In this document: positions 10,371 to 63,642 of the stretch, piece by piece
Layout of the letters: every line of letters starts with the position of its first letter
Position numbering within the stretch: the stretch's first letter is position 1
Assembly (NCBI RefSeq): GCF_029227915.1
Contig: NC_079886.1
Location: 24,528,501-24,592,500 of the forward strand
Reading direction: 5' to 3'
From: Hydractinia symbiolongicarpus
Lineage: Eukaryota; Cnidaria; Hydrozoa; Anthoathecata; Hydractiniidae
Length of the DNA: 64,000 bases
Made by a program: the position numbers and the translations under genes
Notes under the pieces: model-generated
Databases searched by the model: none
Seen by the model: the letters and a program-made list of their open reading frames with translations, nothing else
What the model was told of the DNA's origin: nothing

Positions 10371-13300
10371 ATGAGTAGAGAATATCCTGATTTAACTCCA
10401 CACTTAGATCTCTATAACTTTACAGACTCACTGGCAATTGATAGTCGATATGTTCTTACAAGCCCACGATCATTGGAGGTAAGAGTTTTTGCTTAAGATG
10501 ATTTTTAAATGTCCTCTGTAAACTTCTAAAGTAAAAATTAGTAAGAAACCAGGAAGTTAGAATAAAAACATACCTTTAAAAATGTCTTACATATATTTTC
10601 ATAACTTATATGCTATACTAAATGTTTGTTTGCATTATTTGTTAACACATGTTATGCGAAGTTAAGGAGAAGCAATGATTTTTTGCAATAACATGCAATA
10701 CGCGGTTTCAAATTAATGTAGCAAATTAAACTGTGAACCCTTATTCCCTGAAAAGGTTTTTCCTACAGTACTGGAATCAGGACACCAACATGAGTGCAGA
10801 TCATGTGTGATACACACGTTCCACAAGGGATTGTTCTGCAACGGTTTCAAAAATAATTGTTTCCATTTGTATAAATTTTAATTGAAACAATTTCTACATA
10901 CAGTACTGGAAAAAGGTTGTTTAACATCGCGCTTAGCGTATCGCGACGGTATTCTTGATCCGCGATAGACGTTTTTTACTTTCAAATTTATCGAGAGGGC
11001 TTCGCGATGCACCCGTCTTGATGTCATTCTCGAGGCCATTAACACTTTTTCATAATAGAACTATTTTAAAAATAAGAGTTATTGAACAATGATCTCGGAT
11101 GTTTAAATATAATTATACTTCCTTTGTGTTATATTTTTTTAACTTATCTAGGGTATACAACTAGCGTTAATCTTTCTTTTTTAGATCACATTTTAAAAAT
11201 GTAAGAACTAAGAACGGCGATAGAAAAGCTTCGTTAGATCGCATTTTAAAAATTTAAGAAGGAGGAACGGCGATAGAAAGTTTTTTAGATCGCATTTTAA
11301 AGTCTTAAGAACGAAATGCGACGATAGAAAGGTTTTTTAAGATCGCATTTTAAAAGTTTATAAACGAAAAGCGGCGATAGAAATGTTTTTTAAGATCGAA
11401 TTTGAAAAGTTTTTATAAACGAAATGTGACGATAGAAATGCTGTTTTAGATCGCGTTTTAAAAGTTTAAGAACGAAAGCGGCGACAAAAAAAAGCTTCGT
11501 TAGAGATCGCATTTTCAAAGTTTAAGAACGAAAAGTAGCGTTAGAAAAAAAATACATTGAAGAAGTAATGCGCTAGAATAACTTTAATAAATACGAAAGT
11601 TAAAAAATTTTTTTGTAATATACACCTATTTAAAATAAAAAAAGATAAAGCAGAGATGTTAAAAAATAAGAACGACAAAATCTACGACATAACCAAATAT
11701 ATCTTTCAGCAAGCTTTCGCCAACGCCCAGGTTGGCATGTTCACACTGTTTCTAAATTTTATTTTACAAGTTAGAGATAAAATACTAAACAAGATATAAT
11801 AGGAAGAAAATAGAGCTATTATAGTAATTCTAAAGGCATAGATTTTACCGTGTTATTAAAAATGGGACGGTCACGCTCAATTAGTAAGCTCTCCATCAGA
11901 GTAAGTTTAAAATCTTTAGACTCTTCCGCAAGTACTGAGAAGTTGTGAAACGATGCTTGAGAGTAATTACAAAACATTAAATGTTCAAGAACGGCACTGG
12001 CCTGGGGACCAGGTTTAATGCGTTTACCCGTAAGTGCAGAAATACCTAAATGCTCAGACATACGGACTTTAAAATGGCGTTTTGTTTTGCCATAATAAGT
12101 GGCGTTGCAGCCACTACACTTAAAACAGTAAACGAGTCCGGAGCGTAACGATTCGGGTATTCTGTCCTTAAAGGCAAAGCAGCTACGTAGCCTCCTCTTA
12201 GAAAAAAATATAAGTTTAACATTACAATGTGCCAGTTTCTGCTTAAACAAACGGTGCAAACGTGTTCTAATTTGTAAGGTAATCTTTCCTAAAAAAGGTA
12301 AAACAAGGACTAACTCTTTCTTAGGAGCAAGGGACACTTGTTCCTTCGGTTCGTAATTTCTGCTCTTGAAAATTCTGAGACAGAATTCAAAAACCTTTGA
12401 AGGGTATCCATTCCTTCCAAGAATAGTCTTCAACTGAGATATTTCTACATGAAATTTATTAAGATCTGAACACAGATGGTAACAACGATAAAGTAAAGAA
12501 AAAATCAAGCCGTGTTTATATTCCATGGGTATGAAACTAGAAAAGTTAGTATAAACTCCACTAAATGTTGGTTTCCTATATATGTTGGTGACAAAAGAAT
12601 CACCTTCCCGCATGACGCAAACGTCCAAGAATGGCAAAACCTTATCACATTCTTCTTCAAACGTGAATTTAATATTCTGATGCCTAGAATTAATATATTC
12701 ATAAAAATTTTGAACATGCTCACGTGATTCAAATAAAACAAAAATATCATCAACATATCGTCTATAATAAATCGGCTTAAATTCAGACGGACAATTTTCA
12801 AGCCAAATGTTTTCATAATGACACATAAAAATATTGGCCAGTGTAGGCCCTAACGGAGACCCCATAGCCACACCGTCAATTTGCTTATAATATACGCCGT
12901 TGAAAACAAAAATAGACTCGGTAGTCGCTAGAGTAAGAAGATGTTTCAAATCTTTCTTAGGAATACCATCTATACAATTAGATTCTATCTCATTGATAAT
13001 AATATCAATCGTTTCATGTAATGGAATATTCGGAAAAAGTGAATTAACATCAAAACTAGCCATATAACAGTTAGGATTCTGCTGAACAATTTCTGACGCA
13101 AAACTGAAGGAGTCTTTCACGGTATAGTCATTGATAGTGAGACTTACAAGCTTAGGTACAAGAAACTTTGCAAGCTTGTACGTGGGAGTACCAATAGCAG
13201 AAAGAATAGGACGAAACTTCGGTACGCCATTAACACAAGGTTTATGTACCTTGGCTAGACCATACAAAACACCAGGTTTGGACCCACTGGGACAAAGTTT

Positions 13301-16300
13301 CTTGTACGTAGTTTCATCGATATAATTATTGTTTAATAAAGATCTATAGGAATTCCTCAATCTATTTTCTATATTAATTATATAATTAATGTCCTTACCA
13401 GGAGGAATGTTCAATTTAGCAAATTTTGTATCATCATCGAGAAGGGACTCAACAGCTACAATATAACTATCTTTGTTCAACAATACTACTGTGTTTCCTT
13501 TATCAGCTTTTTGTATTACGATATCATCACGATTCATGAGGTCTTGCAATGCTTTAAACTCATTGGCAGGAAGGCTGGGCTTCTCTGGATTACTGTTGTA
13601 CGAGTAATAAGATGAAAAGGCAGTATCTTTCAGTCTTGTTTTTATGTAGTTTTTGTCTTCTTTAGACAGGTCGTCTCTGTTGATATCTCTCATCAAAAGT
13701 TCGAAAGGTACGAGATAGCTTGCATATTCCAACTTCTTTGGGGGGATAGCGAAATTTAGTCCCTTACAAAGCAACGATTTTTTTTTTTTTTTTTTCTGAG
13801 TCAGACAATTTATAAGATGAAAAGTTAAATATAACTTTGTTCGGATCGTGTCCTACTTTCACATGTTCAGTTTCATTATTTCCCAACTTATGTAACTTCT
13901 TCTGTTGTGTGTCGTAACAACGTTTAATTGATCTGTCGTTTGAAACAAGAAAAAGTGTCGTGATATGGAGAAAATCAATATAATGTAAAGTCTCAGAAAG
14001 AGATCGTTTAAGTATCTCTAGATTATTTTCAAGCACGCGTAACCTACTTCTTTTGGTTTGATTTCATCGTTAAGTAGCGCTAGTTGACATTTACGATACG
14101 CAGTAGAGTTACGAAGATTTCTATTGGCGACTCGAAAATTTAAGAAATTCAGTGTGACATTGTTTACTTTGCAAGACTCCAAGAATTCAAGATCCAGTTT
14201 ACATTCTCTTAATTTATAATCACATTGTTCAAATTTCCTAATGTCCTTCAAAATTGAATTTCCATACCTTTGATTAATAACATTAGCGATAGATTTTGAA
14301 CGTGGAAACCGAATACGGATAATGAAAACAAAAACTAATCCAAGGGCTTTCATAAACATCGTGGGTGAACAATGCTTTTGGAGCGAAGTACAACGTTAAT
14401 GATTGATAAACGACTTACGGCGGAGATTGTGAGTTCGGCTTACTGCGTTATCCAAAATGTACTTAATAACTGCTTCGTCGATTAATAATAGTTGGTAGAG
14501 CAGTTTTTTAAGATGTTAAAAAATAAGAACGACAAAATCTACGACATAACCAAATATATCTTTCAGCAAGCTTTCGCCAACGCCCAGGTTGGCATGTTCA
14601 CACTGTTTCTAAATTTTATTTTACAAGTTAGAGATAAAATACTAAACAAGATATAATAGGAAGAAAATAGAGCTATTATAGTAATTCTAAAGGCATAGAT
14701 TTTACCGTGTTATTTAAAATGGGACGGTCACGCTCAATTAGTAAGCTCTCCATCAGAGTAAGTTTAAAATCTTTAGACTCTTCCGCAAGTACTGAGAAGT
14801 TGTGAAACGATGCTTGAGAGTAATTACAAAACATTAAATGTTCAAGAACGGCACTGGTCTGGGGACCAGGTTTAACGCGTTTACCTGTAAGTGCAGAAAT
14901 ACCTAAATGCTCAGACATACGGACTTTAAAATGGCGTTTTGTTTTGCCATAATAAGCAGAGATGTGTGACAAACAAATTACAATCAAAAAAAAAACACAA
15001 CGGTAATCACTACAATCAATTATTGTAGAGATATTTTGGATGTCTCCAAAACCTCAAGCAACTTGTTTGGAGACGCTTCATGCTTTGTCAAGCAGTCGGC
15101 TAATTGGTGTTTTCCTTCACTGACAGTAATCTTACTATCTTGTTCCACCATCTGCCTCAATCTGGCTATACCAACTCGCAGTCTCAAATACTTTGTGACA
15201 TTTGTCGTTTTCAAGGTTTCAAATAATGATTTGTTGCCGTTAATACAAGTGATCTTTGGAATCTTCGTCAACTTGCAGATTTGCTGTATGACATTTGCCA
15301 AATAAAAACTAGCATCAGCTCCTTAACTCAGAGCAAGTGTTTCCGAAGCAATTGGGCTATTGGTTACCCTTTGTAGTTTCTTTGATTGCCAGCAGATTGG
15401 TATAACTTCACTTAGGTGTTTCACAAATATGATGAATGCACCTTGTGATGATCCACACTTCAAACTGGCATGAGTTGCATCTGTGTAGCAAATAATTTCA
15501 CAATTTTCATATTTGCAATTTTGGCAATGGTTATTGCTACATGTCTGCTCTTAATTTTTCGAATAATCTTGTTGGCATCTTTCTTTCAAATTTTGAACTG
15601 CATCTATCTTTCAAATTTTGAACTGCATCTTTCAAATTTTGAACAACTATCATAAGCTACATTGGGGCAGGTTTGTCTGGCCACCCAAGCAATTTGCCCA
15701 CTCAACGATCTCAGCATGGTCTTTTCCTTGCTTGTCAATTTTCGTTCATTTTTAACATCATTTTCAATATTACCAGTTATCAAAGACTCTATATAGCTCA
15801 CTTGATTAATCTTAATTTTGCTTTTAAATTGATCCACATCTTATCCTAGACACTTAAAGATTGAGCTTGATTGCGTACTCATTTTGAACGTTCCGAAAAG
15901 TTTAGCAATAACATCTTTGTGTAAAGCTGAACTACCACCATACACAAAGTCATCAACATGGCAAACAAGAATTCCAGTGATTTGCTTGCCTCTATACCAG
16001 TAAAATACAGCAAGGTCGTAGGTACACATTTCACCACCAAGTTTCAACATTTCACTTCTCACTTGTTTGTACCATGCTCTAGATGCATTGTTTAACCCAT
16101 ACAAACATCTCTTTAGTTTCCACACTGTTCCCAATGCCAATGTGTCTTTTGGTGGTTGTAGAAACAGTTCTCTTTCAATAGCATCTCCATGAAGAAAAGC
16201 TGCAATGCTATCAAGTGAATTGATCTGCCAATCATTGCTAACTATGATAGCCATAGCAAGTCGAAGACTTTGTTTGCCACAAGTTGGAGAATCTGTTCTC

Positions 16301-16909
16301 AACGATTGTGAATTTTCTTCAAATCCTCTAGCCACCAATCTAGCTTTCACAACACTTTTTTCACCTTTGAACTTCTCAGTTGTGACCCATTTGCTTGATA
16401 CAGTTGTTTGACCAGTGTCTGGAACTTCTTCAAAGACATCATTTTCTTTTAAATTCTGCAATTCTCTCTCCTTCGCATCAACTACTTCCTGTGAAAACAT
16501 ATCGAATCACACATATAGACGGGGAATTCCGGATTTTCCAGCTCGTCCCATTTGGCCACATCATTCCAATTGATGCTTTTTAGCTTTTAATCACCATCAT
16601 TAGACACATTAACCCAATTTTTATAAGTGCCACTTCTTTTGGGTTGTGCTGAGAGAACTCTTGCACGATACCATCTTCCATTTAGATTGTATTTGATGTA
16701 TGATTTTGCTTTTGGTTTTGATTCAACTTTCTTGGATTCTGTAGATGGTCTTCTGAAAATGTCACTTGTACAACCACTACCTTCGTCTTCTTCAGTTTCA
16801 TTATTTTTATGAGTATCCCTGTTTTCCTCAACTTCATTTTCACTTGTGCCAGAATCTTCTTGGCAATTTTTGTCTACATTTCCAGCTTGTTCTTGATGAT
16901 ATTGCTCCA

Positions 16910-19900: not shown

Positions 19901-22900
19901 TATACTGTGACCACTTATCATTAGAATCCATAAAACTAAAAATTTTCTCAAAAACTCAACGATACAGTAATCCCTTTTGACACACAAGCAGTATATCTAA
20001 AAAACCTCTAAATCGTGACAATTTTGTGTGATTTAAAAGATATATCAATTTGCTATATACGATCATGTATTTTATTTAATATGTAAAAAACACACCCTTG
20101 ACTTCGCTGTCTCAAAATCTCCTTAACAATAATAATTAACATCACTTTTTTTTCAATTTTTTTTTGTCTTTTTTTTCTGATATATTTGGCGCCATATCTC
20201 ACTAAAAACTCATTTTCAACATTAGAAAACCCAAGTCTTGCAGGTACAGGTATCGGCGACACAACAGCGTTCATTGCGTAATATCTCAACCAAAGAGAGG
20301 AGAGTTATCAAAAAAATTCCCATCCAATATTAAAGAAATTACTTTACGAGAAAAATCATTTTAAATACTTGGCCCTTAAAAGAGAACTTTAGGGTTGCCA
20401 GAATAGCCTTAATGTTATCTTCGGCTGTCCAAAAAATCTTCCTATTTTTTTTTTTTTTTACTGAAAACTGTTTTGAATATGTTTCAGGACCGCAGACTGT
20501 TAGAAGTCATGATGTCAAAGGAAAAAGAAGAAAAGGAGAGTCGCAAAGTTTCTCTCTCTGGTGAATTAAATTATTCTGAAGAAATTCCTCAAATGTCATT
20601 AATACATCAGCAAAAATTAAAGAAGAAGGAACAAAAGCAGATAAACAAATTAAAAGAACGAGAGGAAAGAATGGTAAGGTTTTAGTAATAACCTGTTTTG
20701 TATAGAAAAATATTAAGGTTTGTAACCAATTACTACTTCGTATTATCAAGCTATCGTGTGCATCCCTTCTCCCTTCTTTGTAAAAGAAATTAAAGTAATG
20801 GGATCGACTTTGATTTTGAAAACTCTGCATTCTAAATATATTTTTTATACAAACTTTTTGTTTCTTATAAAACACGGTTTAAGAATTATGTATGTGTAGT
20901 TTGTTTAGATAATGTCAGCATCTTTGTGCTTTGATTATTTCAGAATGATGTTCGATTGAGAAAGGAAGCAATTGATCGAGAAGCTCAATTACATCGAGAG
21001 GCTGAGTTAAATGTTAAAAATTCAAAATGGCAGAGAGAATACAATAAACAAATGCAAAAAAAGGTATTGTTGGCTAATTAATTATTTTAGATGTATGCAA
21101 TGGGGGAGAGAGGGGATATGTTTTACTAGGGATGCCTCATAACTTTTGAGTAATTCGCTAAAAAATTTCTCTCTGCTTGTTCATAAAAAACGGTACGTAT
21201 AATCGAAAATCATTTGCATTTATGTGCTTTGAGAGGATGGTAACTAGTGATGAATGTATGATTTCATAATACATGCCAAGTGAATAAATACTGGGTTTTG
21301 TTAGCAGTTCAACGTCTTTATGGCATGAACTGAGCAGTCAGGAGTTTGGAGCCTATGTTTAAAAAATCGTTGATTCAGCCCTGTATACATAACCCCTTGA
21401 TTAGTCACTTAAAATTTCACAAAAGTACACATTTTTTCGTAATTATAGGAGTAAGAACTAGACAAGTTATAGTTAATCTGGCTCGTAAATATAGTATATA
21501 TGTGGATCGGACTATGTAAAGGCAGTATTCTTCATCAAACAGCATTCATGTTTTAGTGAAATGCTAATGCTCTCTTTGTTTCCTATTTAGACAAACCAGA
21601 TATCAGATGGATCTTATTACGATCATGCTGAGTTTGAAAGAAAAAAAAGGTAGATTTCTCATTTCCGATAGGTTTGACGTAGTTTGTCTCGATTCTACAA
21701 AGTTACCTTGTTTGTTCAGGTTAGAACACGATGCGTTGTTAAACGATATGGAAGATAAAGAACTTCATGCCCAACAAAGTTTTCAAAATCAAATGAAGAA
21801 GAAACGTTTACAAAGAGATAAAAAGAAGTGAGTTACAATAGTTATGTGTGTTTTATTAGCAGAAATTTTCGAGGAGATTTGGATTTAGATCAGTTTATTT
21901 AAGTTTTTTTCGCTAGAAATAATTTCGCGGATTGGCCTATTATTTTTTAAGTGTCATCAAATTGATTTATCGTATGTTTAGCCTTACATATTTTTGTTTT
22001 ATAACGGTCATAGTGTGTATATATCTTAAACAACACGTGAAAATAAGTAGGGCATACCTGCAACCATTTTCCTTTCGTGGTTAGCAGTAAAAAATATTTT
22101 TCGCTGGCATATAATTTAACAGATGGGGTCCCAAAAATATTTTTCACAGGATTTCTAACGTATATTTTACGCAAAAATTTCTACTAAAAAGTCTACATTT
22201 AAAATTTATTGTCGTGTTTTTTTTCATAAAGAATAAAAGAGATGGAACGCAAAGAACAACAAGAAAGAAATCTGAAAGCAATGCAAAAAGATCTGGAGCT
22301 GTGGCAGAGAGAGCTAGCTGAATTTCAGAACGTCGTACGTAAACTTTTACGATACACTTTTTTATATGAACAATTGATTTTTTGCATTTCACCGCTACGG
22401 AGCGTCATATCTGCCAAAAAAAGCACCACTACTTTCACTGTTTCTTTATGACGTCCTGCGGATCTGTAGGACGTCCTACGGGTGTCTAGGACGTCCTGCA
22501 AACTTCTAGCACGTCCTAAAAATCTCTAGGACGTCCTGCAGCCCTCTAGGACGTCCTAAATACCTCCAGGACGTCCTAAATACCTCTAGGACGTCCTGAA
22601 GATCTCTAGGACGTCCTACGGGTCTCTAGGACTTCCTAAATACCTCTAGGACGTCCTGTAGACCTCTAGGACGTCCTTAAGATCTCTAGGACGTCCTGTC
22701 ACGTGAAACCAGGTTTAAAGTATAGCATTTTAGCTTTCGACCAAAGGGGATATTATCGGCAGTGCGTTTTGTCTGTTATGTCGACATTGAATGTGGATTT
22801 TGACTAATGTAAAAGAATTTAAGAAGAAGGGACTTGCAAGGAACGGATTGTGGTGAGTGGCTTTTCATGATTTTTCCCGTTTCTTTTCTTCATTCAGTAA

Positions 22901-25900
22901 ATGTATCATTTGTATTTTCTTTATCTTTAGACTTGGGAAAAAGATATGGATAGTTCAGGTATTGGGAACTCCAAAAGAGACATTATCACTCATTTTTTTC
23001 GTTGTGGATATCAGTATAAAGACATTTTAGAACTCTTGCGCCGGTATCACGATATTTCAATAAGTATGAGAACTTTGCATCGCTTTTTAAAGGAATATGG
23101 CCTAAAGCGAAAGTGTGCTGATGTATCAACATCCACGATATTAGACAAGGTCAGACAAGAGATTCAGGAAGTTGGAGAAAACCGTGGATACCGTAGTATA
23201 TATCAGCATTTGTTAGAAAAAGGAATACAAATACCAACCAGGTTAGTTAGAGCAACTTTAAAAGAGCTAGACCTATCTGGTGTTGAAAGGAGAACAAAGC
23301 ATCGATTGAAAAGAAGGGTATATAGAACAAATGGTCCGAACGATGTCTGGCACATTGACGGGAACGATAAATTGAAACCCTTCGGGTTTTTCCACGGTGG
23401 AATCGACGGTTTCAGTCGTAAAATTATTTGGCTAGCTGTTTTAGACACAAACAAGAACCCATTTATTATAGCTCACTATTATACTAGTGCAGTGAAGACT
23501 TTATGTGCCGTGCCAAAATTAATTAGAGGGGATAGGGGGACAGAAAATGTGAATGTATGTGGTATCCAACGATTCCTTCGAAGAAATCATCATGATTCAT
23601 GGAGTGGTTGGAACAGTTTCAAGTACGGAAAATCTGTATCAAATCAACGAATAGAGCAGTGGTGGTCATATTTGAAAAGAAATACCACTCAGTCTTGGAT
23701 AGATTATTTTAAAGACCTGCGAGACCAGGGACTATATGACGACAGCAATAACATTCATGTTGAAGCATTGAAGTTTTGTTACTACGGTCTCATTCAGTTA
23801 CATTTAGATCAAGTTAAACATACTTGGAATCACCACAAGATAAGAAGTACAAAATATTTAGAAAGCCCATCTGGAAGACCTGACTTAATGTTTTTTCTAC
23901 CACACAACTACAATGCCATAGATTGTGCATTCGTATTCAATGCAGACGAGCTCGAATTGGCTGAATCCATGTATTCAAAAAAACCTCGAGCTATTCCTTG
24001 TCAGAATGAGTTTATAGGACTATCAAATATTTTGATGGAAGAGCAGAATTTGCAGCATCCGCGTTCACGCGAAGAGGCTGAACATATTTATTTATACCTT
24101 GTATCGACAATAGAAATGTTGTAATTTTAAATTTTATTTATAAAATTTGTGTGAAATAGAAATGAAAAATACGTACAATTTTATATCTTAAAAAACTGTA
24201 TTTCAGTAGTAAAAAGAACAAAAACAAAATGATACAATATAAATCACGTCAGAACTTAACAAACATATATTTAACAAAACACAACTGAGTCTTATTAAAC
24301 CACGTAACCTTATTGTGTACTTTTGAATCTTGTCGGTGATGACTCAACCAAAAGAAATGTCACAAGTTAAAGAGGTCATAGCCAAAAAAGGAAAGCAAAT
24401 GTTGAAAAATTTCTTCGAAACCAACAAGAATAATCTATCGTTATAAAATCATACACATTCAAAAATAAAACAAAAATAGAATATACTTCCAAAAATACGC
24501 TGTTTCATTTTGCTAAAACTATTTCCTTTCAAAATAAGATAAAAATACTACACAATGTGTCAAGCAAATATTTAAACCTATGTATGAAAATTTAAACAAA
24601 TAAATGTTAAAGACTAAAAAATAACATACTCTTTTCCGTAAGTTAACAAAAAGATTCGTAAAAGACTAAAAAGATATTGTCTCAATAAGAACAAAAAGTG
24701 TGTTCACATAAACAGAGTGTATCCAAAAAGTATGAAATTCAAAATTAACCAAGAATACTTAAACCATCATACACAGACCAATGGCCATTGCTGTTGCACT
24801 GGACATTCAAACTGGTTTGAAATTGCGTAAATGATTGAAATTGACGTGGTAGGATTAAAATTTTGAAGCATGTTTTCGCTAGAAGATACAAGTATTTTGG
24901 ATTCTGATCAACAAATTCAACTTTTATTGAAGACGTAGGTAACAAACTTGACGATCCTGTTATAAATCTAACCAATAAAAGCAACTCTGATTTTGTACAA
25001 CTTCTAATATAGCGATTAAGATATGTGCTGATTATTCGGTCCTGTGGGCATGTTTCATTAAAAAAAATCTGTTCAATTAGTGATTCTGCGGTTGGAGTAC
25101 AAGTTGAATAAAGTGAATCAATCATACTTTCACTCAATTTCTGCCAAAATGACCCCATACCTTTAACAATATATTTCATTGGTAGATATGGTCTGTTTAT
25201 CAAAGCAGTGTTCGCAGCTTTCAAACATAATGCCAATACGTTATTTGGTTTTGGCTTATCGAAAACGGTATAACTGTAAAGGACGTCGACTATAGGTTGA
25301 TCACTTGTCTCTTCTTCTTTGGAAAATCGCAATATTGTTTCTGTCTCATATGGTGTGACAAAATTGAGAAAGGAACATAGTAATTGTTGTTTATCAACAC
25401 GATCAAACAAAAGTTTCTTCACAGTGCTTTTACACAGTTGCAAAGGGAAAATAGCATACTGAATGAAAGCATGGTTTACAATACTTCCAATTATTTCCAA
25501 CTCCTCTTCATCAACACAGTCATCCAATGGTACTTTTTCCATAACACCGTCCATTTTCTCATAAAGTTTTTTGTAAAACTCAGCATAACAATCCTTTGTA
25601 ACACCATCTCTATAAGCTTCCTCGCCACTAAATCTAAATGTAGCTTTATGTGAAATAGTTCCACGCTTTTTGTAAATATCAATTAACTCTTAGTACACAT
25701 CTCTGGAAATATCAAAATACAAAGTAGAGTTATTTAGCTTTGATAGTTCATTTGCACGAAAGTCTTGCAGGCTATCAAACTCTTTTTTAGATTCACCAGA
25801 TTGGCTGTAAAGATAGTCCTCCAACCCAATCATACACCTGAGTAAATTTAGCAGTGTCATGAAATAGACGTGCTTTATTTCCTATAACAGGATGGCGTAT

Positions 25901-28900
25901 GGATATTGTGACATGTGCCTCACTAAGATCAGGTTCTGGCATGACTCGATTCTTTCGTATGTTCATAATATCAATTAACTGACGTTCTTTTACTGCTACA
26001 GTATCCTCTATTTCTTCAGTTTCATTTAACAATGATTGTGGTTGTTTATTTTCGTTTTTAACATCACTTTTCTTTTTATCGGCCTCTAGTGACGTATTAT
26101 AAGCTTCATCAATTTCATCTCTCAATCTTTTGCGTTCTACGGATGAACCTAACAAAATAGGACGGTTATTATCTTCATCACCAACAAAATTAATATTAGC
26201 AACTTTATGAGTATTGAAAGGACTTTCAAATAAAACATCGTCGTCTTGGTCATCCTCAAAGATATTGCTCTTTAACTTTGTGAACAAACTGGACAAAATG
26301 GATTTCTTTTTTATTTTGAGATAAATGCGAATATGTTTCAGATTATGTTCTTTAACATAACTCTCTAATGTCAAATCATCACTTAGCTTGTCACCAGAGA
26401 AACTACCAACATATGTTTCAAACAGTGACAATGAACCCAAAACTGGATTGTTATCCTTTGGAAAAAAGGTTTTATGCAATTGTTCTTTTATACCACTCAT
26501 AGTAATGTCCCGAGGTACGGAAAGTTTTCTGGATCCACCAGTACATTTCACATAAGAATATTTTTTTAATCTCTCATTAAAGTTCTGCAAACCAACATTT
26601 ACAGTAAATGAAAGTTTATTTGGTTTCTCCATTGCATGACCATTTCTAATGGCAGCAACTAATTCAGCCTTAACTTTATCTTTTTCACAGTCAGATAATT
26701 TGGCTTTACCATGTTTTGTATAAGCTCTGACGGCAAGGATATCTCCTAATGCTGTCAAACCCATTGATTTCATCATTTCGTCAGTGGATGCATTAATAGC
26801 TTCACCATCCATCTGAAACAGACAATAGAAATAATAATAAAATGTTTGGATATATTATTATCTATCTATCTACCAAGTGGTAAGAAAATAAAATTAATAG
26901 TAACTAATACCTTGTTGGTTCTCAAAGTATCTACTGTAGGATTGTCCACATCTCTTTTAATCAGAAATTGGCAGATCTATAAAATAACAAAAAAGTGGGG
27001 GATCAGACAGGACAGTTTAGCTAGCTAAACTTTTCAGTTTTGATAGCTATGCAGCTAGCTACAAAGTAAATCACAAGATTTGGATATCTCAATACGGAAA
27101 TGACACACTTTATATCCTTAATTACTTACTTCTTCGACTGACACTGTTGCCATAATCAATATAGTCCTTTCTGCGTCCGTGTCAAAGGAAAGCAATATCT
27201 TGTTAAAATCAATTTGTCACAATGTCATTATTCGAAATCGCAGCCATTAGAGCAAATACGACATTAGTATTAAAAAATATAAGCTTAAAAAATCTTCTTT
27301 GCTTCTAATATTATTAGTTATACGTAGACGCCACAAAACCATGTGGTTATTCCCTAGGACGTCCTAGCGATCTCTAGGACGTCCTAGAGCCCCGTAGGAC
27401 GTCCTAGATATACTTAGGACGTCTTGAGACCCTTAGGACGTCCTAGAGCCCCGTAGGAAGTCCTAGATATTCCTAGGACGTCCTAGAGAACCTGTAGGAC
27501 GTCGTAGAGACCCTTAGGACGTCCTAGAGAACCTGTAGGACGTCCTAGAGCCCCGTAGGACGTTCTAGATATTCCTAGGACGTCCTAGAGAATCTGTAGG
27601 ACGTCCTAGATATTCTTAGGACGTCTTAGATTCACTTAGGACGTCCTAGAGCCCCGTAGGACGTCCTACAGTCCCGTAGGTCATCCTAGACACCCTGTAG
27701 GACGTCCTAGAGCCCCGTAGGACGTCCTAGAGTCCCGTAGGTCATCCCAGACACCCTGTAGGACGTCCTAGAGGACTGCAGGACGTCCTAGAGATTTTTA
27801 GGACGTGCTAGAAGTTTGCAGGACGTCCTAGACACCCGTACGACGTCCTACAGATCCGCAGGACGTCAAGAAGAAACTGTGAAAGTAGTGGTGCGATTTT
27901 TGGCAGATATGACGCTTCGTACACCGCAAACATATTGTACCTACTTATGGAAATAACGCCCCCAAGAATTGTTAAGTTTAATAGTTGAAAAAAATTTAAA
28001 GTATTTATTTCATTTATTATTATTTATCACTTAAAATGTTGGCAATTTAGGGAGGGGGGATTGTTCAAATTTGGCATTGGTTATAAAAAACAGATTAAAA
28101 TTTTGCACAGTACATAGTTAAATAAAAATTATGTATACAATTTGTTTTAAGATAATTAAATATAAGTACACTTTTTTCTATTAAATGAATTTTACACATG
28201 CTAAATCTATATTAATGCTAAACTAACAAAAACGATATTAAGTAAGCGGCTGAATACAAAATATAAAATTAAACGGATAAATTGATGATGAAGTGCTTAA
28301 CTTGTTTATTGAGGCCTGGTTTCAACCAAAAAATATACATACCCTCTTTAAGTTTCCTCTGCCAATCAGTGTCTGCATAATTTAAAATGGAAAAACAATT
28401 GTCGTTACATAGTCATTTACAGTTAACATTTGACTGCATATGCTGTCCTTGCAAGAAAAATAATCTTTAATTTTACACGACTTAAAAACAAGGCACACAT
28501 TGATTTCTTTACACATCTCATTGACAAGTTGATTGACTTTTTCTTTGGCGGTATTACAGTACTTGCCAATGTGCCTTGTGTCTGTATATTATTATTGTCG
28601 GTATATTATTATTATTATTATTATTATTTTATTCTTTGTGCAGAGTACAAAGCGGGTAGATAACGTCGTAGACAGCAGGAATGTATCAAAAAGTATGAAA
28701 GCTCATAACAAAAGACTGCAAAAAGAACTCCACCATCTCTCCGTGAAAGCCAAGTTAGAACTCATTCTCTTTGCTTTTTAATTGTTCTGTGTTTTTGCGC
28801 TTATTGTTTTCATCAATACTTTCCTTGTAGAGTCGATGAAGAAGAGAGGTTACGACAAGAAGAATTAAGAGCACTGATAAATTTAAAAGATAAACGATCG

Positions 28901-31643: not shown

Positions 31644-34600
31644 TTAATCGTCGACGTTCATGTCGTCAGGTTCAGCTTTTGATATCGACGCCCGTTGTAA
31701 CGTCGACGACAACGACGTATCAGTAGATGGCGGCAACATCGCCAATAATATTACACGCAAGCATTCAGCCACTTCTTTCGATGGAGCGCAGGACATGGCA
31801 GGCCAGTAACCTAAAAATAAACATCGAAAAAATTAAAAAATTTCGATAATTTGACGTACAACCATAACGCTATATATAAGCAACGACATATGACGTTTCA
31901 ACATACCCGTCGCTTTTTTCCAGACTTAAGTTTTTTAGTCCGAGATTTAGATAATCGAGAAAACTTTTAACCGGAGGAAACTTTAGTCTCCAACTATCAA
32001 AATTAGTCCGCGTCAAACAAAAACAATGTGTACCTTCTTTGTCTTCAGCGATGACATTTGCGCCTCTGTCAACAAGGGCTCCAACAACGTGAGGTAAACC
32101 GTGTTTTGCTGCGATGTGGAGAGGCCTAAAACACAAAATACAAGTACACACACGGACATAAACACAGAGTTTTAAGAATCTAAGGAACAACCGAACCGTT
32201 TGAACCGTTAGTTTAGGGGTGTCTCGGGGACAGCCAAGCCAAACACTTACGTTTGTCCATCCAAGTTTGCAGCACTGATGACGTCATCACTGATTTTGTC
32301 AAGAATCTGCAACGCGCATGTTTGGTGACCCTAAATATTTGAAAGCATAATTTCAGTTTCTACTGGTAGTGAAAGTAGGTTGGGTGAAATTTCAAAACAA
32401 TAAGGATTCAAAAAAACACTTACGTGTAAACACGCCATATGAAGGGCGTTGTTTTGTTGTTTATTTGACATATTCACATTCGCGTCTGCTTCAATTAGTG
32501 CATCTGAAAGAAATAAACATTAGTGATCAACTCGCACAAAACATTTGAGTCTTGTTTACACTGACAGATTTAACAGCATTAAAAGCGTTATCGTTATCGG
32601 TGAAGAAATAATCAGCATTAAGGATACTGTAATGGGTCGGACACATGTTCAGTATACTCATTATTGCTAGAAAGTTTTTTTTTCTACAAAATTATTTATT
32701 AGATGTAAAAGCAAATTAAATTGTCTATAAGATAATATAAATATAATTTTTTTTTTTTCAAGTAGCCATAAATCCACATTTTTTATTTTCACCAAAACGT
32801 TCGAAAACATTACAGTATCCTAAAGGTGTTGGAGATAATATCAAATAGTTTTGATATCGTAAAACCAACATTAAAGAGGGTGTTATCACCTTCATTGACT
32901 GCTAGACGTGCTAACGCACTTAACGCCGACTTCAGAAAACGCTTTAGGCCCCTAAATGACCGTCATTTATGGCCGTTCAACCATTAGAGATTTGAGCGTG
33001 TATTACGGTAAGCAAACAACGGTCTTACCAAGTACATTTTGGTGTCCTCGTTTTGCTGCCATCATTATAGCAGTTTCACCATTGCTACACAAACCATTGG
33101 TATCGGCTCCGTGTTCAATTAAAGATTGCAGACAATCCGCACTGTCACTGAACGCAGCTGCATGTAACGGAGTTCTAAACACGTTTGTTACAGATGGTTA
33201 ATAATGTACATGGCACCTTTGAACACTGGGTAATCTTGGTCACACTTACCTCCCTTTTGAATCTTTAGTATTTACGATATCACTACCGAGCGTGTCGAGC
33301 AGAACTTCAAGGCAGGAATCGTTACCACGACAACTAGAAAGTATAATTTAAGGAAATTATGTACGTACCAAAAAATATAGGGGCGCATCTATAACAGATT
33401 TAAAAAAATTTGTTTTAGCCATGTGTCAAAGGGTAAAAATTTTGATTTTGCTCTCAACGTTGTTAATTGTAAAGGACAGTTTTTAATTTGACTGCTTTTT
33501 AGCGAGGCTTGCACGCAAATCCCTATGTACTATTAGGCATAATATTTCAAACATTTAACTAATGAAAGGTAAACTCAACAAGTTGCAGTGTACTGCAGCC
33601 ACAAGAAAAACTTTGGGACACTAATAAAATATTACCTCGCACAGTGTACTGGAGAGAATGAGTTACCGACAAACGCTTGCTTCGAATTTTCCTAAGAAAA
33701 AAAAATGTGCCATATTTAGCAATCTCTTAAACAGTGAAGACTTGATAAACTTGTCTACAATATGAGGGAAGTGGTCAAATCTGCAAATACTTTCAAATGA
33801 CTTTACTTTTGGTAAGTAAGAAGTCAAGCTTGTATTTTATACGTCACATTTAAAGAAGAAAGAATATGTTAAATTATGTTAATTTATACAATCACATAGC
33901 CAGCCTCTTCTTACCTCAAGTAGTAACTCAGCACAACTTTCATTACCTGTGTTAACAAAATAAACAATTATCAAAAAATAATTCATCGTGTTTATCAATT
34001 GCTAGGCTGTATAACCTGATCCTATATATAGCTAACACAAATTGAGCGTCGAACAGTATCCACCTTGGATAACGTTATGTAAGTACAGTAGACTCTTGGA
34101 CCAAAAAAAATTTGTTCGACATATAGAGTTGGAATTAAAGAACGGTCGAGCTTCATTTTGATCTTTTCCAGTTAATGTCCATAAATTCAAATATTTTAGG
34201 ACCTTATCATTTAAATACAACAATAATTTCTTCTTCGGATTTGTTGTTGATTTATTGTGTTCATAACTTACGATTAGCTAAGGCACCTTATACACGGAGC
34301 AGGTTTTCAAAATAAAGAGAGAAAATGCTCCAAGGGACAAGGTAAACATTCGAGAATTTAGAAGGACATTGTAAACTATGCTAAAAAATTGGTGGAATAA
34401 AGGGGTTCGAATCATAGGGTTCGAATCATAGGGAGTCAAATTATTATAGAGTCCACCATATGTACTTTAGATATGTACATGTTTTCATATCCATCGATCA
34501 AGACCACCAAGTGATGGACTTAAATAGAAGTTTATTACTATCATATATACAGGTTTGATCGTAAACATATATCACTTTTTTAAATAAGGCTCATCATTTA

Positions 34601-57552: not shown

Positions 57553-63642
<6,090 letters not shown>

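What the first reader, a model, noticed from the sequence alone, without database searches (positions are those of the whole stretch)
22390..27927. A complete two-gene DNA transposon combining a DDE transposase with a SAM/HECT-like gene
Seen directly: a 6-bp target duplication, long terminal inverted repeats, an intact D138-D196-E236 transposase, and a second, spliced, convergent gene with SAM, ubiquitin-fold-like and HECT-like parts. All of it lies inside one intron. Known: HECT proteins are E3 ubiquitin ligases, and IS3-type DDE enzymes exist in eukaryotic transposons. Inference: the ligase may control transposase or host-repressor stability. I am not aware of a described function for such a cargo gene.
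Basis: partly seen in the sequence, partly recalled or inferred. Interest (0 to 1): 0.87.

Follow-up and report, generated by a model that had tools for sequence, protein, structure and literature searches.

The report
Transposon carrying a ubiquitin-ligase gene
This is a jumping gene, probably from a hydroid animal, that carries beside its transposase a second gene for a ubiquitin-tagging enzyme; this particular copy is damaged, but the same gene pair appears to travel together in some relatives, so the enzyme may be part of the transposon's toolkit.

Summary
The element is real: 5526 bp (22396-27921), 6-bp duplication CACCGC, 163-bp inverted repeats 95% matched, TA..TA termini and a DDE transposase, which fits the known IS3EU/GingerRoot superfamily. 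'Complete' is wrong for this copy. Against a Hydractinia homologue the second gene lacks 87 codons with a change of frame, has a premature stop and lacks one more codon; the transposase lacks one residue that 120 of 120 listed relatives have. The second gene's family has a HECT ligase fold, a FAF1-like coiled coil plus part of a UBX domain, and a SAM domain in the window's exons; the catalytic Cys is kept in 7 of 7 relatives that reach it. Three other contigs, matched only by exactly equal length, hold a related transposase and a related HECT protein. No open-licence PMC paper holds IS3EU together with HECT. I read it as a new variant of a known kind: an IS3EU transposon with an E3-ligase accessory gene. 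The mechanism is inference. The own-genome search did not complete, so copy number, empty sites and dN/dS are untested.

The parts
22390..22395 (.). target-site duplication, left copy (CACCGC)
   Evidence: identical to 27922-27927
22396..22558 (+). left terminal inverted repeat, begins TACGGAGCG
   Evidence: 163 nt, 95% complementary to 27759-27921
22448..22697 (.). left array of 13 copies of the palindrome AGGACGTCCT (up to 1 mismatch; 10 exact), all spaced 20 bp
   Evidence: no copy in the 64 kb outside the two end regions
22853..22930 (+). possible GT..AG intron in the 5' untranslated part of the transposase gene (inferred by eye)
   Evidence: sequence; no transcript evidence
22946..24124 (+). 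DDE transposase ORF, 392 aa, D138 D196 E237; lacks one residue of the conserved PFGFxxH segment
   Evidence: model of relative P0001 has an integrase-like fold
24745..25803 (-). linker and HECT part of the second gene, in a different frame from the upstream part; in-frame stop at 25690-25692
   Evidence: 95% identical to P0121 residues 425-776
25802..26812 (-). third exon of the second gene: second half of SAM, middle region, FAF1-like coiled coil and first half of UBX; the next 87 codons of P0121 are missing at the junction
   Evidence: 96% identical to P0121 residues 1-337
26911..26976 (-). second exon (SAM, first half), GT..AG borders
   Evidence: SAM_2 3.3e-5 when exons are joined
27130..27153 (-). 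first exon, start codon MATVSVEE, donor GTAAGT
27356..27849 (.). right array of 23 copies of AGGACGTCCT (up to 1 mismatch; 16 exact), spaced 19-21 bp with two 41-bp gaps
27759..27921 (-). right terminal inverted repeat, ends ..CGCTTCGTA
27922..27927 (.). target-site duplication, right copy (CACCGC)

Best explanation
It is a decaying copy of an IS3EU/GingerRoot-type DNA transposon whose source element carried two convergent genes: a DDE transposase and a SAM - coiled coil/UBX - HECT protein. Shown: the ends, target duplication, transposase, architecture of the second gene and its lesions here. Probable: both genes occur together on three other contigs. Inferred: the source transposase binds the inverted repeats and perhaps the palindromic arrays and moves the element by cut and paste, and the second gene makes an E3 ubiquitin ligase that helps it. 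Most likely mechanism: the SAM and UBX parts place the ligase on a chromatin-bound target, either the transposase-DNA complex (to take it apart or limit dosage) or a host silencing protein, and HECT ubiquitylates it. The window copy cannot make the full ligase from its present frames.
Against: The three contigs were matched only by equal length; I could not read them, so distance, orientation and shared ends are unseen. The other 8 of 11 HECT hits have no partner among the 120 transposases listed of 559. Among the ten best transposases, 3 of the 6 on contigs of 5.9 kb or longer (P0007, P0008, P0010) have no HECT hit; both HECT searches scored only about 8000 candidates. This copy's second gene is broken. 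Domain calls are uneven: Pfam found no SAM or UBX in P0121, P0123, P0126 or the fuller P0128 even at E 5, HECT in P0126 is below the cut-off, Pfam gave nothing for the window's 353-aa piece, and P0121 alone meets FAF1 only at 0.059; UBX rests on the 11-sequence profile. The fold search tested mainly residues 417-765. No activity, target or transcript is known.
Confidence: 0.75

Rival explanations
1. The HECT gene is an ordinary host gene captured once by an IS3EU element and carried as dead freight.
For: It is broken in the window copy. A UBX-HECT-like relative (P0128, 846 aa) is annotated in the coral Desmophyllum pertusum with no transposon context visible to me. 8 of 11 HECT hits have no visible partner.
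Against: Three diverged contigs probably hold both genes. The annotated Hydractinia homologue P0121 itself departs from the family: at 9 differences in conserved columns P0121 keeps the consensus 3 times, the window copy 5 times, neither once, which looks like two independently drifting copies rather than one constrained host gene. The count is small.
Confidence: 0.15
2. The second gene is a regular accessory gene, and the ligase acts against the host: it removes a host silencing or restriction factor.
For: TET+ fungal IS3EU families carry TET/JBP and alpha-kinase genes, the alpha-kinase in opposite orientation to the transposase as the HECT gene is here; the TET/JBP genes are proposed to help escape from methylation-based silencing (passages of PMC12730594). 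So host-modifying second genes occur in this superfamily.
Against: No target known; no experimental data here.
Confidence: 0.35
3. The second gene is a regular accessory gene, and the ligase acts on the element's own transposase or its strand-transfer complex, limiting dosage or helping p97/Cdc48 take the complex apart, in the way that ClpX remodels the Mu transpososome (recalled, no call).
For: FAF1-like coiled coil and UBX in one protein with HECT. Ubiquitin/SUMO-processing domains (OTU, Ulp1) recur on Ginger1 transposases, and their authors suggested that the ubiquitin pathway takes part in transposition (passages of PMC2836005).
Against: The FAF1 alignment stops before the UBX loop that in known UBX proteins meets p97 (recalled), so p97 binding is neither supported nor excluded. 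The examples in the passages read remove ubiquitin or SUMO rather than add it.
Confidence: 0.3
4. This copy (not the family) is an inactive relic whose open transposase frame only reflects recent insertion. This can be true together with the other readings.
For: The transposase lacks a residue at or next to the start of strand 149-155 of the modelled relative; at its 10 differences from P0001 it matches the family consensus 0 times, P0001 7 times. HECT gene broken.
Against: Frame open over 392 aa; TIRs still 95% alike.
Confidence: 0.6

Closest known systems
IS3EU / GingerRoot superfamily
   Same: TA..TA termini, 6-bp TSD, DDE transposase; fungal TET+ members carry extra genes, one in opposite orientation to the transposase
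   Different: Extra genes named in the passages read are TET/JBP and alpha-kinase; the word HECT occurs in neither of the two papers. Long arrays of a 20-bp-spaced palindrome at both ends here; whether others have them was not checked.
Ginger1
   Same: integrase-like transposase associated with ubiquitin/SUMO-processing domains (OTU, Ulp1) in Hydra and others
   Different: Ginger1 has 4-bp targets and TGT-type termini, and its extra domains are C-terminal parts of the transposase that remove ubiquitin or SUMO; here a separate gene would add ubiquitin.
HECT E3 ligases (UBR5, HUWE1, AREL1, Smurf)
   Same: HECT fold and TC active-site context
   Different: N-terminal SAM and FAF1-like coiled coil/UBX; location in a transposon.
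FAF1-type UBX proteins
   Same: coiled coil followed by UBX, first half aligned
   Different: HECT follows; other FAF1 parts were not identified.

Membership tests
IS3EU/GingerRoot superfamily | TA..TA termini | tested here: met
   TACG..CGTA; criterion
IS3EU/GingerRoot superfamily | 6-bp target-site duplication | tested here: met
   CACCGC both sides; one copy only
IS3EU/GingerRoot superfamily | transposase groups with Repbase IS3EU transposases in a tree | not tested
   Repbase sequences not available; PF24764 hit is consistent, the link of PF24764 to IS3EU is recalled
Ginger1 | 4-bp TSD and TGT-type termini | tested here: not met
   6-bp TSD, TACG termini; criterion
HECT E3 ligase | HECT fold | tested here: met
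   on homologue P0121; Pfam on the window piece
HECT E3 ligase | catalytic Cys in the C-lobe | tested here: met
   7 of 7 relatives that reach it, of 11; present in the window's HECT piece but behind a frame change and stop
HECT E3 ligase | ubiquitin transfer activity | not testable with these tools
   needs an assay
UBX p97 adaptor | UBX domain | tested here: inconclusive
   FAF1 profile match 1.5e-8 over coiled coil and first half of UBX; Pfam finds no UBX
UBX p97 adaptor | p97-binding loop | tested here: inconclusive
   alignment ends before it
SAM-domain protein | SAM domain above curated cut-off | tested here: met
   SAM_2 24.4 bits, cut-off 20.5, on the window's joined exons; not found by Pfam in P0128, which has the matching N-terminus

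The most novel reading that the evidence does not exclude
A lineage of animal IS3EU transposons keeps, under selection, its own HECT ligase with a FAF1/UBX-like module, which ubiquitylates the transposase-DNA complex and recruits p97 to dismantle it after strand transfer: a eukaryotic counterpart of transpososome remodelling by ClpX in phage Mu.
Probability: 0.15. Interest if true: 0.88.

Novelty: new variant of a known kind. Interest (0 to 1): 0.6.

Why it matters
Transposons with enzymes that remove ubiquitin or SUMO are in print; one that carries a ligase would add the opposite activity and make testable whether the ubiquitin system takes direct part in transposition or in escape from silencing. 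It also suggests that some HECT genes annotated in cnidarians (for example LOC130621994 of Hydractinia symbiolongicarpus) may be transposon genes rather than host ligases.

Tried and rejected
Bacterial-style promoter/terminator scan: not informative for an animal genome. A profile-based HECT search returned 8 proteins, all among the 11; both scored only about 8000 candidates, so the HECT list is incomplete. Transposase profile against solved structures by sequence: none at E 0.1. Considered and rejected: that the frame change in the HECT gene is a normal intron. Of the 87 missing residues (338-424), the first 35 (338-372) have counterparts in 9 of the other 10 relatives (P0125 begins near their end), so coding sequence has been lost; residues 373-424 are a poorly conserved linker, gapped in several relatives. 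Cryptic splicing is not excluded. Strand folding of the left end shows strong self-pairing, z -10, which palindromic repeats make expected, so I draw nothing from it. Literature: IS3EU 35 papers; IS3EU with HECT none; GingerRoot 9 papers, most unrelated by title; 'DNA transposon' with HECT one paper, unrelated by title and abstract; none; listings had nothing relevant (one search showed 10 of 188); (10 of 913 shown) gave the Hydractinia genome paper. Only open-licence PMC papers were searched; Repbase Reports were not. Of the four papers opened I saw passages found by terms, not whole texts.

Full report
What is there. A 5526-bp element (22396-27921) is flanked by the 6-bp duplication CACCGC. 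Its ends are inverted repeats of 163 nt, 95% complementary, beginning TACGGAGCG and TACGAAGCG. Inside each end lies an array of the 10-bp palindrome AGGACGTCCT: 13 copies on the left at exactly 20 bp and 23 on the right at 19-21 bp with two 41-bp gaps, allowing one mismatch; none occurs in the 64 kb outside the two end regions. A spacing of about two helical turns would put sites on one face of the DNA, so binding sites for the transposase or another dimeric protein are a reasonable inference.

Transposase. The + strand ORF 22946-24124 (392 aa) hits PF24764 (rva_4, integrase core) at 1.9e-37. The triad is D138, D196, E237. In the 120 listed relatives the spacing is 58/40 in 105, 58/37 and 58/35 in one each, and 13 were not matched by my patterns. 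A model of the closest relative P0001 (97% identical; mean pLDDT 90.2) matches retroviral integrases, TnsB, IstA and MuA by fold (best E 8.7e-6, TM-scores low). The window's protein is not pristine. It lacks one residue between PFGF and H that 120 of 120 listed relatives have (83 by the exact pattern, 37 by the printed variants; a stricter pattern matched 116, and three of the four misses show the two residues). At its 10 differences from P0001 it matches the family consensus 0 times and P0001 7 times.

Second gene. On the minus strand, exons 27153-27130, 26976-26911 and from 26812 have GT..AG borders. Joined, they give a SAM domain above Pfam's cut-off, which supports the splice model. The closest relative, P0121 (LOC130621994, annotated as Hydractinia symbiolongicarpus), is 96% and 95% identical over the two parts, but its residues 338-424 are missing from the window copy, the parts lie in different frames, a stop sits at 25690-25692 and one further codon is lost. 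The first 35 of those 87 residues have counterparts in 9 of the other 10 relatives; the rest is a variable linker. So the gene is a pseudogene in this copy. The near-identity to P0121 suggests, but does not prove, that the window is from Hydractinia.

Is the pair more than a local accident? Three HECT relatives and three transposase relatives lie on contigs of exactly equal length: 8858 (P0004/P0123), 20822 (P0009/P0129), 32612 (P0002/P0125); each is a one-member, one-contig entry from the same source. From the length distribution 0.026 such coincidences are expected (P 2.9e-6). Identities to the window fall together: on contigs 32612, 8858 and 20822 transposase 72, 62, 52% and HECT 59, 40, 34%, the HECT values over 49, 95 and 46% of the read-through query. 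Against this: 8 of 11 HECT hits have no partner among 120 listed of 559 transposases, and of the six best-ten transposases on contigs of at least 5.9 kb, three (P0007, P0008, P0010) have no HECT hit. The HECT searches were capped, so absence is weak. Long open frames at 27-59% identity, with the Cys kept where it is reached, imply selection in those lineages (inference; dN/dS was not computed because no second nucleotide copy could be read).

Host gene or transposon gene? P0121 and the window copy differ at 28 of 687 compared residues; at 9 differences in conserved columns P0121 keeps the consensus 3 times, the window copy 5 times, neither once. Both copies therefore seem to drift, as dispersed transposon copies do, and LOC130621994 may be a transposon gene. 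The count is small and its genomic surroundings were not seen.

Comparison. IS3EU is described with TA..TA termini and usually 6-bp TSDs (passages of PMC10045372). TET+ fungal members carry TET/JBP and alpha-kinase genes, the latter in opposite orientation to the transposase (passages of PMC12730594). Ginger1 transposases carry OTU or Ulp1 domains, and their authors proposed that the ubiquitin pathway takes part in transposition (passages of PMC2836005). The Hydractinia genome paper reports 48.11% unclassified repeats and its main text has no 'IS3EU' (passages of PMC10411563). No paper of the open library holds IS3EU with HECT, and 'DNA transposon' with HECT gave one paper, unrelated by its title and abstract. 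Repbase was not searchable, so an undescribed status is likely, not certain.

Verdict. The element is an ordinary IS3EU-type transposon by its ends and transposase, and a damaged copy. Its unusual feature is the second gene, which probable linkage in relatives makes a likely accessory gene of a sublineage. Mechanism remains inference.

Noticed in passing
window 11819-13852 (-): 677-aa reverse-transcriptase ORF (RVT_1 2.9e-12); its C-terminal part recurs in a 125-aa ORF at 14676-15053, which has no Pfam hit. It looks like a Penelope-like element with a GIY-YIG-like end (recalled, not tested).
   Followed up: partly
window 15841-16506 (-): Fragment of a copia-type reverse transcriptase (RVT_2 8.4e-26; 'copia-type' is recalled).
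   Followed up: partly
window 60099-60494 (-): Exon-like ORF with a weak acetyltransferase match (0.0038, below cut-off); by eye it resembles the GCN5/KAT2 HAT domain.
   Followed up: no
window 31870-32283 (-): ORF with an ankyrin repeat (Ank 4.9e-5).
   Followed up: no
window 22448-22697 and 27356-27849: Dense arrays of palindrome AGGACGTCCT spaced about 20 bp in both ends of the element, absent elsewhere in the window; possible binding sites.
   Followed up: partly
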